Notes under the pieces: generated by a model
Seen by the model: the letters and a program-made list of their open reading frames with translations, nothing else
Database searches by the model: none
Told to the model about the DNA's origin: nothing
Program-made: the position numbers and the translations under genes
Assembly: GCF_006542275.1 (NCBI RefSeq)
Contig: NZ_CP041217.1
Coordinates: 3,846,501 to 3,910,500 of the forward strand
Direction of reading: 5' to 3'
Source: Saccharibacillus brassicae
Lineage (GTDB): Bacteria; Bacillota; Bacilli; Paenibacillales; Paenibacillaceae
DNA: 64,000 bases
In this document: positions 57 through 51,833 of the stretch, one piece after another
How positions within the stretch are numbered: position 1 is the first letter of the stretch
How the letters are laid out: every line of letters begins with the position of its first letter

Positions 57-1160
57 TTAAATGAGAGTAAGTTCTTTTTGCATAATCATTCTATCTGTAT
101 TCCATTTTGCGTCAATATAATCATATTCAATTCCTGCAAATGTTTTTAATATAGCTTCTATGATTATTTTAGCTCCTTCTGGAGGTACCGCCATCCCAAT
201 CTGTTGTCTTACTTTTTCTTTACCACCTAAGAATTCATAATCATCAGGGAAAGTTTGTAAACGTGCTCTTTCACGGTTAGTTAAAGCGCGAGGTTCTTCC
301 CAATGATACATATGAGTTCCGCCTCCCCCGCTTCCTGTTACCGTATAGGAAGGGGTGTTCTCAGACAGCCTACGATAAATCTGGCTCATTTTAGCTCCTT
401 TAACATTTAACCTCAGATGTTCAGGTATACCTTCATACCAAGCATTTTGGCCTGCTGGTATGTTATTTAAAAACTCTATGACTTTTGCAGTATGGCGTGT
501 ACGTTCGTGGTTAGGAGCATCTAATGCGATTGGAGGTTCCATCAAGGCTTCTTTTGCAGTTTTAAATGGTAATTTTCCAGGACCATGAGTTGGTGCTGGG
601 ACTTTAAATTGCAAATTCAAATCGTTTCTTATACCTACAATAATAATTCTATGTCTTGTTTGTGGGACTCCATATTCTTGGAACTTATACAGATGAGGAA
701 TAATTTTATAACCTGCTTCTATAAGATCTCCTAAAATTAAATTGAAGGCCTGTCCATCATTAGCACTTGTTAAACCAGATACATTTTCAGCTATAAACCA
801 TTTAGGTTGGAATTTTTTCAAAACTTGTACTCCATAAGTGTAAAGTGGTCCGTATTCTCCATGTAATCCTTTTTTCTCACCAACAAGACTATAATCATTA
901 CAAGGGAATCCGAAAGTAAATGCGTCTATATCTGTTAAAGAATTGATATCTAACTTTCTTACATCTTCCTGAATTACTGTTTCAGATTTTGTCGGGCAAA
1001 TATTGTGTATAAAAGTTCTGCAAGCAGCTTCATCATAATCATTAGCCCATTCGTGTTGGACCGAATATACTCTGCCTTCTTTGTCTACAACTTTGGACAT
1101 TTTAGCACCCATTGCTATTCCACCAGGGCCGTTAAAGAATTCACCTTTTTTAAAAAGCAT
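57..1160 (-). CDS. DNA (cytosine-5-)-methyltransferase, Dcm/HhaI-type
   Basis: This 367-residue protein transfers a methyl group from S-adenosylmethionine to C5 of cytosine in a specific DNA site. C5-methyltransferase motifs occur in order: motif I as FNGPGGIAMG near residues 9-18, motif IV as GFPCNDYSLVG with catalytic Cys near residue 86, motif VI as ENVSGL, motif VIII as QTRHRIIIVGIR, and motifs IX-X as TNRERARLQTFPDDYEF and QQIGMAVPPEGAK. PCN replaces the commoner PCQ. The gene is AT-rich, unlike the flanking chromosome, which suggests recent transfer. A mismatch-glycosylase-like gene lies 257 bp upstream on the same strand. No restriction endonuclease is visible here; one could lie beyond position 1. 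The target sequence cannot be read from the protein. Confidence 0.93.
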   Translation of the reverse strand: MLFKKGEFFNGPGGIAMGAKMSKVVDKEGRVYSVQHEWANDYDEAACRTFIHNICPTKSETVIQEDVRKLDINSLTDIDAFTFGFPCNDYSLVGEKKGLHGEYGPLYTYGVQVLKKFQPKWFIAENVSGLTSANDGQAFNLILGDLIEAGYKIIPHLYKFQEYGVPQTRHRIIIVGIRNDLNLQFKVPAPTHGPGKLPFKTAKEALMEPPIALDAPNHERTRHTAKVIEFLNNIPAGQNAWYEGIPEHLRLNVKGAKMSQIYRRLSENTPSYTVTGSGGGGTHMYHWEEPRALTNRERARLQTFPDDYEFLGGKEKVRQQIGMAVPPEGAKIIIEAILKTFAGIEYDYIDAKWNTDRMIMQKELTLI

Positions 1161-11219: not shown

Positions 11220-11547
11220 CAGCGGGGCGGCCGGGAGTTTGAGCGGAAAGTGGAAAGAAAAGGTGCAGAGTCCGAGGACGATGAAGGCGGGACATTGAGG
11301 GCTTCGGCGAAAGCGAAAAAAATGTACGGAGTCTGGCGAAAGGTACAGGCGAGGCGGCCAGGGGCATGGGCGAAATATGGGAAAGAGAGGCCGAAAGTTC
11401 GGGCGGACCTGCCGCAAGACGCTGCGATGGCGGTGGAGCCGGAGTGAGCGATTGATCGACAACGGCTGATCGAGGCAGCTGGGTGTACGTCATGATTTGC
11501 CCCTCCGCCGACGCTGCCAGATAGGCAAAATCGCGACATACTGGACG

Positions 11548-11732
11548 ATTAACTGCCTGAAGACACTTATTTTTGCGGAAAAGCCGTCTGAATCGAAAAT
11601 AACTGCGCAGATCCACTTATTTGGTCTGAAAAGAGGCTCCAAGTGCTTAGATGTGCAAAATAAGTGTTCTCTCGCAATTATTTGGTTGAAACGGACCTAT
11701 GGAGGGAAATAAGTGCTCCCAGGCAGTTATTC
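11548..11732. repeat. Four-footed palindromic array A1 (AATAACTGC family)
   Basis: Four 25-bp imperfect palindromes of consensus AATAACTGC-N7-CACTTATTT lie at 11548-11572, 11598-11622, 11659-11683 and 11708-11732. Equivalent positions are spaced 50, 61 and 49 bp. The first two read TAACTGC...CACTTATTT and the last two the reverse orientation. The spacers are gene-free. The same geometry recurs at 23411, 36116, 41915, 50996 and 51471. Confidence 0.8.
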
Positions 11733-22714: not shown

Positions 22715-23227
22715 TTAATCGTCCAGGTTGACCGTCGAAAGGCCCGGCATGCCGGACTTGGACGGGGTGAACCAGAGATCGCCGTCGTCGATCGAAGCGC
22801 CTTTCCAGTTCACGAACAATTCGGCAAACGAAGTGTCGGCGAGGTTCTCGCGCACGTCATCCGTGAAGATCCGGTTGTAGTTGTTCAGGAATTGGGCTTT
22901 ATTTTTGATGACCATTTTCTTGTTGGACGCGTCGTCGTCGTGGTTGTAGACGGTCAGCGGGTAATGCACGCGCGCGGCTACGCCGGCTTTGTCGCCTTTG
23001 GCGACGGCACGTTTCAGGTTGGCATAGAAAGCCTTGAAGTTGGACGCGCTTTTGAATCCGGCGACGTCAACCAGCTTGTTCTCCACGCCCGCCGCTGCGG
23101 TCGAGGCGGAAGCCGATATCGACGTTACGGGTCCGGCAGCCGGAGCGGCCGAGACCGGCACGGCAATCGCTGCGGCCAGCAGGGTCGTTGTCGCCAGGGC
23201 GGTTGTTTTTCTCCATCTGTTCTTCAT
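22715..23227 (-). CDS. Secreted protein of unknown function
   Basis: A 170-residue exported protein. The signal peptide MKNRWRKTTALATTTLLAAA ends at about AVPVSAAPA with an AxA-type cleavage site. The mature part has FKAFYANLKRAVAKGDKAGVAARVHYPLTV and a following KAQFLNNYNRIFTDDVRENL, a pattern like small NTF2-like or DUF4440-type secreted domains. The start ATG 23227 is preceded by GGAGGTAG. Terminator shared with namA. Function unknown. Confidence 0.75.
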   Translation of the reverse strand: MKNRWRKTTALATTTLLAAAIAVPVSAAPAAGPVTSISASASTAAAGVENKLVDVAGFKSASNFKAFYANLKRAVAKGDKAGVAARVHYPLTVYNHDDDASNKKMVIKNKAQFLNNYNRIFTDDVRENLADTSFAELFVNWKGASIDDGDLWFTPSKSGMPGLSTVNLDD

Positions 23228-23410
23228 GGGGTCTACCTCCGTTGTCAGACTGCTGCTTTTTTTTTCGCAACTGGAAAGCTGTCGAAAAATAAGCAGGTGT
23301 GTCAGATTGGCTGTACCCTATGCTTTTGGACGAAACGGAGCCAACTGAATCATCCGCTATCCCGAGTGCGAGAGAGCGGTGAACAGTCACCAATCAACCG
23401 GATCGGGCAA

Positions 23411-23596
23411 AATAAATGCGAGAGAACACTTATTTTCCGCAAATCAGCCGTTTTCGCTCAAATAGCTGCGAGAGAACCGTTATTTGTCGCGCAGGGAGGG
23501 AAGTCGGCTGAGAACGGGCAAAATAAGCGTCGCTGCGCACTTATTTTTTTCTGGCATGACGAGGCGCACCGAATAACTGTCGTGAGGCAGTTATTT
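23411..23596. repeat. Four-footed palindromic array A2 (AATAACTGC family)
   Basis: Units of 25 bp lie at 23411-23435, 23461-23485, 23522-23546 and 23572-23596, with spacing 50, 61 and 50 bp. They match array A1: AATAAATGCGAGAGAACACTTATTT style feet with TTTT/GG edges. It lies between the promoter of the secreted-protein gene and the cupin gene. Confidence 0.8.
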
Positions 23597-23630
23597 GGTT
23601 ATTTGGTTATTTGGTTATTTGGTAGTTCGG
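23591..23630 (+). repeat. Octamer microsatellite (TTATTTGG)n
   Basis: Four TTATTTGG copies and one TAGTTCGG in strict 8-bp register. The first copy is the end of the fourth foot of array A2. Confidence 0.9.
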
Positions 23631-23650
23631 TGCACCGCCGACGGGTCGAT

Positions 23651-23698
23651 CCGCTTACCAATCCGCTTACCGATCTGCTTACCAATCCGCTCACCGAT
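23651..23698 (+). repeat. 12-bp tandem repeat, four copies
   Basis: CCGCTTACCAAT, CCGCTTACCGAT, CTGCTTACCAAT and CCGCTCACCGAT follow without gaps, just before the stop of the leftward cupin gene. Confidence 0.85.
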
Positions 23699-23713
23699 CC
23701 GGCCGTCCCCGCT

Positions 23714-24118
23714 TTACTCGCCCAACCTGCCGTAAGCTTCGTCGTCTACCGGCTCCAGCCACTGCGTCTCGCCGGGCGTCAGCGCCAGATGGACGAACCA
23801 GCTGTCTTTGTTCGCTCCGTGCCAATGTTTGACATGCGGCGGGATATTGACGATATCGCCGGCTTTGAGAGGCTGCGCCGGTTGGTTCTCTGCCTGGTAC
23901 CAGCCTTCGCCGCCGGTCACGATCAGCACCTGGCCGACTTGGTGGGTATGCCAGTTGTTGCGGGAACCGGGCGCGAACGTGACGCTGCCGATCGCAGCAT
24001 TAAGCGGGGAGCTGTCGGTGAACACCAGGTTGAGATAGGTCTCGCCGGTAAAATAATCGTTGTCGATTTGGCTGCCGAGCGGGAATAACCCGCCGCCGTT
24101 CAGTTCTTCGTAAGCCAT
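23714..24118 (-). CDS. Single-domain cupin protein
   Basis: A 134-residue small beta-barrel protein. Metal ligands of the first cupin motif are in NNWHTHQVGQVLIVTGGEGWY and of the second in PPHVKHWHGANKDS. Homologues of this size and pattern are often annotated as cupin domain or carboxymuconolactone-decarboxylase-associated proteins; the reaction is unknown. I start at ATG 24118 because AGGAGCG precedes it; the longer frame to 24265 overlaps the divergent gene's start and has no ribosome binding site. Confidence 0.85.
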   Translation of the reverse strand: MAYEELNGGGLFPLGSQIDNDYFTGETYLNLVFTDSSPLNAAIGSVTFAPGSRNNWHTHQVGQVLIVTGGEGWYQAENQPAQPLKAGDIVNIPPHVKHWHGANKDSWFVHLALTPGETQWLEPVDDEAYGRLGE

Positions 24119-33100: not shown

Positions 33101-33175
33101 CAAGAAGGCGCGGCGGAGATAGAGTAGACACGTAACCTGACCCGCCGCCTTCGGGCGTCAATCGAATAGCATGAT

Positions 33176-33263
33176 CCACTGGGGGAGCCGCTGCGCGGCT
33201 GAGACAAGAACAGCTCTTGGACCCTTTGAACCTGATCCGGCTCGTACCGGCGTAGGGAAGTGG
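33176..33263 (+). promoter_or_regulatory. TPP riboswitch (THI box)
   Basis: P1 is CCACT (33176-33180) with AGTGG (33259-33263). The conserved core is present: CGGCTGAGA in the pyrimidine-sensor arm, and ACCCTTTGAACCTGATC with GTAGGGAAG in the junction and pyrophosphate arm. It precedes a terminator and tenA-thiM-thiD. Binding of thiamine pyrophosphate should favour the terminator and shut off the operon. Confidence 0.96.
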
Positions 33264-33318
33264 AGCCGGACCCCTGTTTCGGACAACGACAAGTTTGTAC
33301 TTTTGATGCATAAACGGG

Positions 33319-36115: not shown

Positions 36116-36297
36116 TAACGAATCCTAGCAGCGCTATTTGCCGATTTTTCGTGTTTTTAGCAAACTAACGAATCCTCCTATCCTTATTGGGCGTGAAAAC
36201 GCCGTTTTAGGCCGATTTTGAGGCAATAGCGTGATGACGATTCGTTAGTTTGGATAAAAGCGCGTAAATAGGCAAATAGCGTGATCAGGGTTCGTTA
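36116..36297. repeat. Four-footed inverted array B1 (TAACGAATCC family)
   Basis: Feet of 25 bp with consensus TAACGAATCCT-N4-ACGCTATTTG lie forward at 36116-36140 and 36166-36190, and reversed at 36223-36247 and 36273-36297. Spacings are 50, 57 and 50 bp. The 26-bp spacer between feet 1 and 2 matches the reverse complement of the 3-4 spacer at 17 of 26 positions, so the whole 182 bp is a large imperfect inverted repeat with a roughly 32-bp loop. Confidence 0.85.
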
Positions 36298-41715: not shown

Positions 41716-41914
41716 CAAGATTGGCGGGAGGTGGAGGGTCAGGCGGATTGCTAGGGGGCTTGGAGTGCTATAGCCACACTACTCACGCTATAGTGGCTGC
41801 AGCAGCTACAACACCTATAGCGCCTACAACATACTATCTACACGACCTACAGCCACAGCATCCGACTCGCGAAAATCGCCTGCGGGCCGGTGTTGATACG
41901 GACTCGGCCGATGC
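41716..41914. other. Gene-free low-complexity spacer
   Basis: Contains CTATAG/GCTATAG words and CTACA-type repeats between about 41768 and 41860. No ORF with a start signal is seen. Confidence 0.5.
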
Positions 41915-42096
41915 TAACGAATCGTCGTCACGCTATTTGCGCTCAGAATGGCTTTTATGGATTTTAACGAATCCTCAGCACGCTATTTGCTCCAAAACGT
42001 CGCAAATCGACCCTATTGCGGCCGATAGCGTTACGAGGATTCGTTAGATTCTCCAAACGGCCGAATATCCGCGAATAGCGTTATCAGGATTCGCTG
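41915..42096. repeat. Four-footed inverted array B2 (TAACGAATCC family)
   Basis: Feet lie forward at 41915-41939 and 41965-41989, and reversed at 42022-42046 and 42072-42096. Spacings are 50, 57 and 50 bp, identical to B1. Foot 1 reads TAACGAATCGTCGTCACGC and continues TATTTG. It lies between two convergent genes. Confidence 0.85.
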
Positions 42097-42176
42097 CGCG
42101 TCTAAAGCGGCAGGGCCGACAGCGCGCAAAGTTCGATCCGAACCTTGCGCAGCGCAGCCGCGCTCCGGGCAACAAA

Positions 42177-50728: not shown

Positions 50729-50995
50729 GTCGTCTCGCGGATGGACAGAGCGCGGGGCGGCGGGCTAGGGAAACGGTGGGTATGGCGCGCGTGGCGGAGG
50801 CGGAGTGGGCGGGGCGGTAAGCGGCGGCAGCCCTTACCCATAGAGAGGGACCAGTAGGGGGCGGGATGGGGATAGGGAAGGGCAGGTGGGTAAGCAGAAA
50901 AAGGCGAGAGGAGGAGGCGTTACGGTTACCGTTCGAGGAGAGGGAGAGGAAACGAAACGGAAAAAACGGGAGTGAACGAGGCCGCCAGGGAACGC

Positions 50996-51187
50996 TAACG
51001 GACCCGGGCGACGCTTAGCTGCCGATTCGGAACGTTTGAGCATTCTAACGGATTCAGGTGACGCTTAGAAGGGAACACGGCTTGTTTTTGGCGGAAAAAG
51101 AGGGCAAAAAAGCGGCTAACGGAACTACAATCCGTTAAAAGCTTGGAAAGGCTTGATTGAGCGTTCTAAAGGACATACAATCCGTTA
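50996..51187. repeat. Four-footed inverted array C (TAACGGATT family)
   Basis: Feet lie forward at 50996-51018 (TAACGGACCCGGGCG...) and 51046-51068 (TAACGGATTCAGGTG...ACGCTTAG), and reversed at 51115-51137 and 51165-51187 (...ACAATCCGTTA). Spacings are 50, 69 and 50 bp. It is unrelated in sequence to families A, B and D but has the same geometry. Confidence 0.8.
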
Positions 51188-51340
51188 GCCGAGCCGAGCC
51201 GAGCCGAGCCGAGCCGAGCCGAGCCGAGCCGAGCCGAGCCGAGCCGAGCCGAGCCGAGCCGAGCCGAGCCGAGCCGAGCCGAGCCGAGCCGAGCCGAGCC
51301 GAGCCGAGCCGAGCCGAGCCGAGCCGAGCCGAGCCGAGCC
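51187..51340 (+). repeat. (GAGCC)30 pentanucleotide microsatellite
   Basis: Thirty perfect GAGCC copies occupy 51191-51340, preceded by a partial AGCC. The tract starts at the end of foot 4 of array C. Confidence 0.97.
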
Positions 51341-51470
51341 AGGGGAGTAGGAATTGGCTCGGTTTGCCGGCGAACCGCTATTCTCGGCAGCAGTCTTTAC
51401 CTGCCGTTGGCTCTGCTTTTGACTTCGCCCGTAGTCTTACCTGGTGCGAAGCTTGCCGGCATCGCTAAAT

Positions 51471-51651
51471 GTGGACCAAAAGTCAGCATTTCGTCCGTAA
51501 AAAGTGCCCAGAGAGCGAAAAGCTGACCAAAAGTCAGCAATCTGCCGCATTTCGGCCGTCCCATAGCCGTTTTGGCCTAAATTGCTGACCGGAAGTCAGC
51601 ATTGTGCCAAAAAAAGCCGCATCCAAACAAAAAAGCTGACCTCAGGTCAGC
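51471..51651. repeat. Four-footed palindromic array D (GCTGACC family)
   Basis: Palindromes of about 17 bp lie at 51471-51487 (GTGGACCAAAAGTCAGC), 51522-51538, 51584-51600 and 51635-51651 (GCTGACCTCAGGTCAGC). Spacings are 51, 62 and 51 bp. The fourth is a perfect hairpin between A and T runs and can act as a bidirectional terminator, including for the leftward gene at 51834. Confidence 0.82.
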
Positions 51652-51833
51652 TTTTTCTTGGATTCGACTCCGCAGCCGCTAATTTCGGGCAGGACACCGC
51701 GCCGCGGCAATTTCCCCCCCGACTCGTTTTGCCCGACTCAGATCCTTCAACCGAATCTCTCACTCCAGCCCTTCAATCCAGTCTTTCACTCCAGTCTTTC
51801 AATCCAATCCCTCAATCCCGTCCGCCAACCCGC

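What the first reader, a model, noticed from the sequence alone, without database searches (positions are those of the whole stretch)
41915..42096. A recurring four-footed inverted array with fixed 50-57..69-50 geometry and interchangeable motif sequences
Seen directly: six intergenic loci (11548, 23411, 36116, 41915, 50996, 51471) each hold four copies of a 17-25 bp motif. Spacings are 50/61/49, 50/61/50, 50/57/50, 50/57/50, 50/69/50 and 51/62/51. Four different motif sequences are used, yet the geometry is held. In families B and C the order is forward, forward, reverse, reverse. The equal outer spacings are what a long hairpin with matched internal loops needs. Conserved spacing with unrelated motifs argues that architecture is selected or copied as a unit. 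Inference: it could be a hairpin RNA or DNA element, a MITE-like family with variable feet, or an array for an oligomeric DNA-binding protein. I know of no named element of this form.
Basis: partly seen in the sequence, partly recalled or inferred. Interest (0 to 1): 0.9.

Follow-up and report, generated by a model that had tools for sequence, protein, structure and literature searches.

The report
Four-site DNA-wrapping elements between genes
Scattered between the genes of this bacterium are many roughly 180-base DNA pieces that carry four protein-site-like motifs at exact distances on a 10-base AT/GC rhythm, as if built to be wrapped round a protein, and the same layout is kept with quite different motifs and in related genera.

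Summary
In 1.664 Mb (window plus 80 evenly taken stretches) 72 of 77 family-A feet sit in exact forward-forward-reverse-reverse quartets, and 51 elements of four motif families were found (roughly 160-170 per genome by extrapolation). Spacing inside a half is 50 or 51 bp with few exceptions. The new result is why: AT content oscillates across the whole element, spacers and loop included, with a dyad-symmetric period of about 10.0 bp (A, B) or 10.2 bp (D), so foot spacing equals five lattice periods. A motif-blind scan for that comb returns mostly these elements and showed D to be a third large family. The middle gap differs by one turn: 57/58 against 67/68. In 12 orthologous pairs feet are more conserved than spacers and both keep their length beside indel-rich flanks. 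In family A, arms of one element match no better than arms of different elements, which speaks against a selected long hairpin. I read these as double-stranded DNA elements wrapped on one face by an oligomeric protein, commonest between convergent genes. The protein is unknown; RemA is a testable candidate.

The parts
41915..42096 (.). Family A element, 182 bp, dyad about 42005/42006; feet 41915-41939 (+), 41965-41989 (+), 42022-42046 (-), 42072-42096 (-); centre spacing 50/57/50
   Evidence: the fourth foot has more than 2 mismatches and is read. Between convergent genes.
36116..36297 (.). Family A element, 182 bp; feet 36116-36140 (+), 36166-36190 (+), 36223-36247 (-), 36273-36297 (-); 50/57/50
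   Evidence: second foot read; AT-lattice amplitude at the 99.97th percentile of 2.25 Mb.
11544..11729 (.). Family B element (feet like AAATAACTGC-n6-GCAGTTATTT, imperfect palindromes); 50/61/49
23407..23593 (.). Family B element; 50/61/50. A weakly scoring ORF call (22892-24088 +) overlaps it and is probably spurious
50996..51187 (.). Family C element (TAACGGA...GCTTAG feet, A-like); forward feet begin at 50996 and 51046, reverse feet end at 51137 and 51187; 50/67/50, ten bp longer in the middle than family A
   Evidence: (its near copy in L071).
51468..51656 (.). Family D element (AAATGTTGAC-n6-nnCACATTT feet); 51/62/51. The fourth foot, 51630-51656, is a perfect stem ending in TTTTT and looks like a terminator

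Best explanation
Each element is a double-stranded DNA scaffold of about 180-190 bp that is wrapped or strongly bent over its whole length on the surface of an oligomeric DNA-binding protein. The four 25-26 bp feet are the sequence-specific contacts. They are held on one face of the helix because those in one half are exactly five lattice periods apart and the halves are related by a dyad. Between the feet the letters are fairly free, but the AT/GC phase is not: AT-rich steps every 10 bp make the minor groove easy to compress on the inner face and GC-rich steps alternate with them, as in nucleosome-positioning DNA (recalled). Different foot families (A, B, C, D) would be read by different but related proteins, or by one system with several specificities, on the same scaffold. 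They favour gaps between convergent genes and avoid divergent ones, so I propose, tentatively, that they act as architectural or topological spacers (supercoil sink or insulator) between transcription units rather than as promoters. Shown here: geometry, lattice, dyad symmetry, constraint on length, conservation, location. Inferred: the protein, the wrapping, its handedness (a 10.0 bp repeat is below the 10.5 bp of free DNA, which by the usual argument, recalled, favours a left-handed path), and the function. RemA (PF04025) is a concrete candidate: octameric or 16-meric rings and reported AT-rich protected 7-bp blocks with 3-bp gaps, that is, a 10-bp period.
For: Fixed geometry: window plus even stretches; 2.253 Mb, 30 of 111 stretches chosen around A hits: same-half spacing 50 in 95, 51 in 10, 49 in 1 of 106 intervals; centre gap 57 in 50, 58 in 3 of 53. 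Lattice: A power 21 at 10.0 bp vs 1.2 at 10.5 (35 elements: the 36 of 48 quartets with exactly 50/57/50, less one near-identical copy); B 48-50 vs 0.3-0.5 (21 elements); D peak 39 at 10.2 bp (11 elements). With feet masked, spacers plus loop alone still peak at 10.0 in A (22.8) and 9.9 in B (28.5), with a lesser component at 12 bp (8.9 and 5.8). Dyad symmetry r = 0.97, 0.90, 0.84. Foot spacing tracks lattice: 50 with 10.0, 51 with 10.2. Motif-blind scan: 79 loci at amplitude 26 or more in 2.253 Mb, 0 in base shuffles; a first-order Markov surrogate had 1 stretch, at 26.1; 61 of the 79 are A or B, and of the other 18 I read 9 as D, 1 as C and 8 as neither. Specific period: 79 loci at 10.0, 48 at 10.2, 24 at 9.75, 3 each at 9.5 and 10.5, 5-6 at 9-9.25, 0 at 10.75, 1 at 11. 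Middle gap changes by one turn: 57/58 in most genera looked at, 68 in 3 of 3 G085 elements, C 67 against A 57 in the window. AA/TT/TA and GC/CG steps in antiphase. Length constraint: 12 orthologous pairs, feet 82% and spacers 64% identical by aligned base, gap fractions feet 0.016, spacers 0.053, loop 0.058, flanks 0.215. Location: 44 convergent, 41 tandem, 5 divergent of 90 placed elements against 27/57/16% expected from room; on the even sample 17, 22 and 4 of 43. RemA-type genes: 2 in this genome; footprint period from passages of PMC8481266.
Against: No protein, footprint or expression evidence. A wedge model of static curvature (parameters recalled) does not make the elements unusually bent: median 33rd and 35th percentile, so only bendability, not built-in curvature, is left. 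In family B the two arms of a foot do covary (6.30 vs 5.70, p 0.0002) and foot2/foot3 complementarity is raised (p 0.012), which a hairpin view would also predict. With an even-length window, whose axis is half a base off, the symmetry of B and D falls to r 0.65 and 0.58. A phased lattice could reflect one-face binding by a filament without wrapping. In tandem gaps the elements do not clearly hug gene 3' ends (closer to the upstream gene's end in 24 of 41). RemA has known low sequence specificity and promoter-upstream sites, does not explain conserved 25-bp feet, and also occurs in genomes as distant as Synechococcus and Thermotoga. PF00808 histones are absent. An S. kuerlensis element has no counterpart here (547 vs 38 bp). 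60 kb of G001, a species of the same genus, gave no lattice locus.
Confidence: 0.6

Rival explanations
1. A long RNA or cruciform hairpin whose arms pair foot 1 with foot 4 and foot 2 with foot 3.
For: The two window A elements fold far better than shuffles as RNA (z -6.1 and -8.3); B feet are palindromes whose arms covary, and B foot2/foot3 complementarity is raised.
Against: No within-element excess of complementarity between arms in A (35 elements, permutation p 0.89-1.0), nor between B foot1/foot4 (p 0.61) or B spacers (p 0.97). No Rfam match for the elements of the window. A 10-bp AT comb and one-turn jumps of the middle gap are not predicted by RNA pairing. Good folding follows from the inverted arms alone.
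Confidence: 0.07
2. A MITE- or REP/BIME-like mobile repeat whose shape reflects its transposition.
For: 51 elements in 1.664 Mb, four motif families, an occupied-versus-empty orthologous pair (L107/L138), a B pair at 86.3% identity 9 kb apart, a copy on a Paenibacillus plasmid.
Against: No Y1 transposase (RAYT) hit in the genome. Apart from that B pair, a duplicated C+D block and tandem copies, the closest pairs are 78.6% (A), 68.6% (B) and 59.8% (D) identical, so no recent dispersal seen. Kept at the same place in other species beside diverged flanks. Few indels in spacers despite divergence argues for present function.
Confidence: 0.12
3. Ordinary multi-operator arrays for a transcription factor (four operators on one helix face, looping but no wrapping).
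For: Palindrome-like 25-26 bp feet at helix-phased distances; foot sequence conserved.
Against: The lattice continues through spacers and loop where there are no operators. Elements avoid divergent (promoter-rich) gaps: 5 of 90. Flanking genes show no common function: the commonest Pfam families occur in 4 of 131 (no control set run).
Confidence: 0.13
4. Preferred binding sites of DNA gyrase or another general topoisomerase, as BIME-2 elements are in E. coli (recalled).
For: Dyad-symmetric 10-bp AT comb over a wrap-sized length; preference for gaps between convergent genes.
Against: Four conserved, family-specific 25-bp feet are not needed by gyrase; its wrap is right-handed (recalled), which would favour a repeat above 10.5, not 10.0; gyrase is universal (recalled) while in 272 genomes of other orders of the class the A-type pair gave only two single hits at other spacings.
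Confidence: 0.08

Closest known systems
RemA (PF04025) target regions, B. subtilis eps/tap (PMC8481266; outline, passages and section 8 read)
   Same: DNA thought to wrap round an octameric or 16-meric ring; reported AT-rich protected 7-bp blocks with 3-bp gaps, a 10-bp period; low sequence conservation; this genome has two PF04025 genes.
   Different: Known RemA sites lie upstream of promoters, and the passages describe no four-foot 50/57/50 layout or 25-bp conserved feet; RemA-type genes also occur in distant genomes.
REP / BIME / REPIN elements with RAYT (listings and starts of abstracts; otherwise recalled)
   Same: Many copies of short imperfect palindromes, intergenic, in inverted arrangement.
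   Different: Here mostly four feet, in A two forward and two reverse, fixed at 50 bp; no RAYT in the genome; several motifs share one geometry; 10-bp AT comb.
Lrp/AsnC octamer wrapping sites (recalled; mentioned in PMC8481266 passages)
   Same: Four dimers could bind four palindromic sites and wrap DNA.
   Different: Lrp sites are about 31 bp apart (recalled), not 50; not a dispersed conserved element.
Genome-wide 10-11 bp periodicity of bacteria (PMC516772, PMC4132750, PMC7537859; starts of abstracts in listing)
   Same: Helix-period AT signal; in E. coli concentrated between genes.
   Different: That signal is genome-wide and near 11 bp; here it is local, dyad-symmetric, 10.0-10.2 bp and tied to four motifs.

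Membership tests
REP/BIME/REPIN | Cognate RAYT (Y1 transposase domain) in the genome | tested here: not met
   PF01797: 0 matches in own genome; control rings in 5 of 14 genomes.
REP/BIME/REPIN | Alternating REP orientation with variable numbers | tested here: not met
   Family A is ++-- in 16 of 20 clusters plus one ++--++--. For the palindromic B feet orientation is not meaningful.
MITE | Near-identical dispersed copies from recent transposition | tested here: not met
   Closest pairs 78.6% of 35 A, 86.3% then 68.6% of 21 B, 59.8% of 11 D. Near-identical copies had been dropped first: one A (presumably of the L073 tandem pair) and, in D, probably one of the copies in the duplicated C+D block.
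MITE | Target-site duplications | tested here: inconclusive
   Aligned flanks show only a C before and G after the outer A feet; empty-site junctions not resolved base by base.
Structured RNA (Rfam) | Match to a known family at its gathering score | tested here: not met
   Window searched: only a TPP riboswitch at 33171-33275.
Structured RNA (new) | Compensatory change between paired arms | tested here: not met
   A: none of three arm comparisons above permuted. B: foot1/foot4 and spacers not above, foot2/foot3 above (p 0.012), within-foot arms above (p 0.0002).
RemA target | RemA-type protein encoded | tested here: met
   Two PF04025 matches, 129.3 and 35.8 bits; the second lies between recF- and gyrB-like genes recognised by eye.
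RemA target | AT-rich contacts at 10-bp period | tested here: met
   Sequence lattice 10.0-10.2 bp against 7+3 bp footprints reported in PMC8481266.
RemA target | Location upstream of an activated promoter | tested here: not met
   5 of 90 in divergent gaps, 44 in convergent gaps; tandem gaps (41) leave it open for those.
RemA target | Physical binding | not testable with these tools
   Needs purified protein.
Histone-type nucleosome | Histone-fold protein | tested here: not met
   PF00808: 0 matches in own genome; control rings in 3 of 14. Other bacterial histone families not searched.

The most novel reading that the evidence does not exclude
A bacterial counterpart of sequence-positioned nucleosomes: a dispersed class of dyad-symmetric wrapping sites, present in several genera of one order, with a common scaffold of about 16 turns between outer foot centres on which the recognition feet are interchangeable, each family read by its own member of a DNA-wrapping protein family, punctuating the chromosome between transcription units.
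Probability: 0.4. Interest if true: 0.92.

Novelty: categorically new. Interest (0 to 1): 0.82.

Why it matters
If right, part of the bacterial chromosome carries explicit, maintained instructions for where DNA is to be wrapped, with recognition and architecture separated: the scaffold is fixed and the motif can be swapped. That would give a defined substrate for finding an unknown architectural protein system and would make questions about how bacteria insulate neighbouring and convergent genes, and place supercoils, directly testable. Even if wrapping is wrong, no listing that I saw in ten library searches named an intergenic element of this form; most subscription journals are outside that library.

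Tried and rejected
Hairpin covariation: rejected as the organising rule; the B results that point the other way are reported. The D foot slices were one base out of register, so the D foot values are not used; B slices ignore 1-bp spacing differences, which can raise within-element similarity. Static curvature by wedge model: not unusual, so intrinsic bending was dropped in favour of bendability. RAYT and histone-fold searches: negative. Functional theme of flanking genes (131 of the 132 proteins listed by the script were given): none visible, no control set run. Motif replacement at one locus: S. kuerlensis L108/L172 has an A element in the syntenic interval where the window has B at 11544, but other genes lie in that interval, so I claim no swap. 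Plasmid and phage searches with the 41905-42110 sequence: 1 plasmid record, 0 phage records. The first D model drifted to AT-rich sequence (678 feet, 53 in shuffle) and was rebuilt from quartets (75 feet, 4 in shuffle). G001 (60 kb) gave no lattice locus; too little sequence to call absence. Synteny counts: the relatives' loci were themselves picked for having an A pair, and 30 of 111 own stretches were chosen around A elements. 21 relative elements had both flanks syntenic; own had the same family in 16 and any family in 18. On window and even stretches only: same family 4 of 6, other 1, none 1. One search used 12 A pairs with four feet on both sides; pairs with 3 or 5 feet and the B case were left out. 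Its flank identity (63% by aligned base) is inflated by free gap placement and is not used as a neutral rate.

Full report
WHAT IS THERE. The window is 3846501-3910500 of a single-contig 5.62 Mb genome. Its relatives point to Saccharibacillus: a scan of named genomes for the paired A foot with a free gap (start-to-start 39-69 bp) gave 22 stretches with 24 matches, 23 at 50 bp and 1 at 51, from four Saccharibacillus species, three Paenibacillus species and Cohnella xylanilytica, and many of the Saccharibacillus loci are collinear with this genome, mostly at 75-92% identity. The six loci of the finding exist as described. A quartet search with motif and spacing left free found 17 quartets in 864 kb, 11 of them with outer spacings 49-51, and none in a shuffle; with looser settings 74 in 1.664 Mb, 29 with outer spacings 49-52, none in a shuffle.

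HOW FIXED IT IS. In the window plus 80 evenly taken stretches (1.664 Mb) 77 A feet form 20 clusters: 16 quartets (++--), one double quartet, one triple, two singles. In 2.253 Mb (30 of 111 stretches chosen around A hits) 216 feet form 57 clusters, 48 of them quartets; of 106 same-half distances 95 are 50, 10 are 51 and 1 is 49; of 53 middle distances 50 are 57 and 3 are 58 by centre. B: 22 quartets, all within 1 bp of 50/61/50. D: 51/62/51 (33 at 51, 3 at 52, 16 at 62, 1 at 60). The 1.664 Mb hold 51 elements with three or more feet, 22 B, 19 A, 8 D and 2 C, of which 6 are the window's own; this extrapolates to roughly 160-170 per genome.

THE LATTICE. Averaging AT content over 35 A elements shows peaks every 10 bp through feet, spacers and loop: power 21 at 10.0 bp against 1.2 at 10.5. 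B is cleaner still (48 against 0.5). D peaks at 10.2 bp, matching its 51-bp spacing: five periods in each case. With feet masked the peak stays (10.0 in A, 9.9 in B). The pattern is symmetric about the dyad (r 0.97, 0.90, 0.84; with the axis half a base off, B and D fall to 0.65 and 0.58). AA/TT/TA and GC/CG steps alternate in antiphase, the rule known from nucleosome-positioning DNA (recalled). Yet predicted static curvature is ordinary. A detector that knows no motif, only a 10-bp AT comb over 191 bp, returns 79 loci in 2.253 Mb and none in base shuffles; a Markov surrogate has one stretch, just at threshold. Sixty-one of the 79 are A or B; of the other 18 I read 9 as D, 1 as C and 8 as neither. 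That is how D came to light as a large family. By period the loci number 79 at 10.0, 48 at 10.2, 24 at 9.75, 3 at 9.5, 3 at 10.5, 0 at 10.75, 1 at 11 and 5-6 at 9-9.25, where coding periodicity of 3 may contribute. The six window elements lie above the 99.6th percentile.

ACROSS SPECIES. Among 272 genomes of other orders of the class only two have it, once each and at 59 and 42 bp (40-61 allowed). Reversed-pattern controls gave 0, 1 and 2 hits. The paired D foot was found in 3 of 294 other genomes of the family, all in this genus. In another family of the order (G036) four of six full quartets are 50/58/50, the other two 50/56/50 and 50/57/51, with the lattice at 10.0; in G085 3 of 3 are 50/68/50, a full turn longer. 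Family C in the window is 50/67/50 against A's 50/57/50 by the same edges. Single A elements in Cohnella, three Paenibacillus species and on a P. guangzhouensis plasmid keep 50-51/57-58/50-51.

SELECTION. Orthologous elements are still in place where the surrounding intergenic DNA hardly aligns. Over 12 pairs the feet are 82% identical by aligned base, spacers 64% and loop 62%, and gap columns make up 1.6, 5.3 and 5.8% against 21.5% in the flanks; spacers of non-orthologous arms agree at 11.4 of 25. So spacers do change letters, more than feet, but seldom length. In L101 (3 feet) and, by alignment, L099 one 50-bp unit is missing, and in this genome some arrays have grown by 50- or 51-bp units (2828511-2828768; L145; L033 with 12 B feet). 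One S. kuerlensis element has no counterpart here, nor has one B element of L112.

WHERE. Of 98 elements 90 could be placed: 44 between convergent genes, 41 tandem, 5 divergent; 7 lay at a stretch end and 1 overlapped a doubtful ORF. Available room would give 27, 57 and 16% (home-made gene caller). On the even sample alone the numbers are 17, 22 and 4 of 43, against 127, 436 and 155 of 718 gaps of 100 bp or more. In tandem gaps there is no clear lean to the upstream gene's end (24 of 41). Flanking genes have no common theme. The density is uneven: 29 of 51 elements fall in 3.0-4.0 Mb, 344 of 1664 kb sampled, the window with its 6 included. By GC skew and a recF-remB-gyrB order recognised by eye at 2.55 Mb the origin is near 2.55-2.65 Mb, so this dense region lies on one arm.

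MECHANISM. The hairpin reading fails its own test in family A; B gives one raised comparison and palindromic feet. Present in the data are four recognition-sized sites, equal phase, a dyad, and a bending comb through the connecting DNA with constrained length. That is what a wrapped nucleoprotein complex needs. The binder is unknown. RemA is suggested by its published footprint (7 protected plus 3 unprotected bp, AT-rich, repeated) and ring shape (PMC8481266: passages, outline, section 8) and by two RemA-type genes here; but it would not account for the conserved feet, so a specific partner or a paralogous system is likely. Histone-fold proteins (PF00808) and RAYT transposases were not found.

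NOVELTY. The window's elements match no Rfam family, and no listing seen in ten library searches named such an element. It shares features with REP/BIME elements and with RemA or Lrp wrapping sites, but fails tested defining features of the first and is untested for physical binding by the others. I therefore file it as a new class of element that probably works like a known kind of complex.

Noticed in passing
window 33171-33275: TPP riboswitch, 80.3 bits, the only Rfam match in the window.
   Followed up: no
window 50983-51679 and L071 17563-18241: The neighbouring C and D elements lie in a 698-bp block that recurs at 89% identity about 0.7 Mb away, a duplicated intergenic region carrying both element types.
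   Followed up: partly
window about 51189, 11748 and 23594 onward: Short tandem repeats (GCCGA, GTGGAAGA, GGTTATTT units) begin at or within about 20 bp of the edge of three of the six elements.
   Followed up: no
window 51630-51656: The outer foot of the D element is a perfect 12-bp stem with a 3-base loop that ends in TTTTT, so a foot may double as a transcription terminator.
   Followed up: no
genome 3.0-4.0 Mb: 29 of 51 elements lie in this fifth of the sample (23 of 45 without the window), on one replication arm.
   Followed up: partly
G000:C1:2828511-2828768: Six A feet in one orientation at 50 or 49 bp with nearly identical units: tandem growth of the 50-bp unit.
   Followed up: no
L041 9253 and 18269: Two B elements 9 kb apart at 86.3% identity, the closest B pair seen.
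   Followed up: no
L189 (P. guangzhouensis plasmid NZ_CP045294.1): A complete A element (50/58/50) between a family 10 glycosylhydrolase gene and a BadF-type ATPase gene on a plasmid.
   Followed up: no
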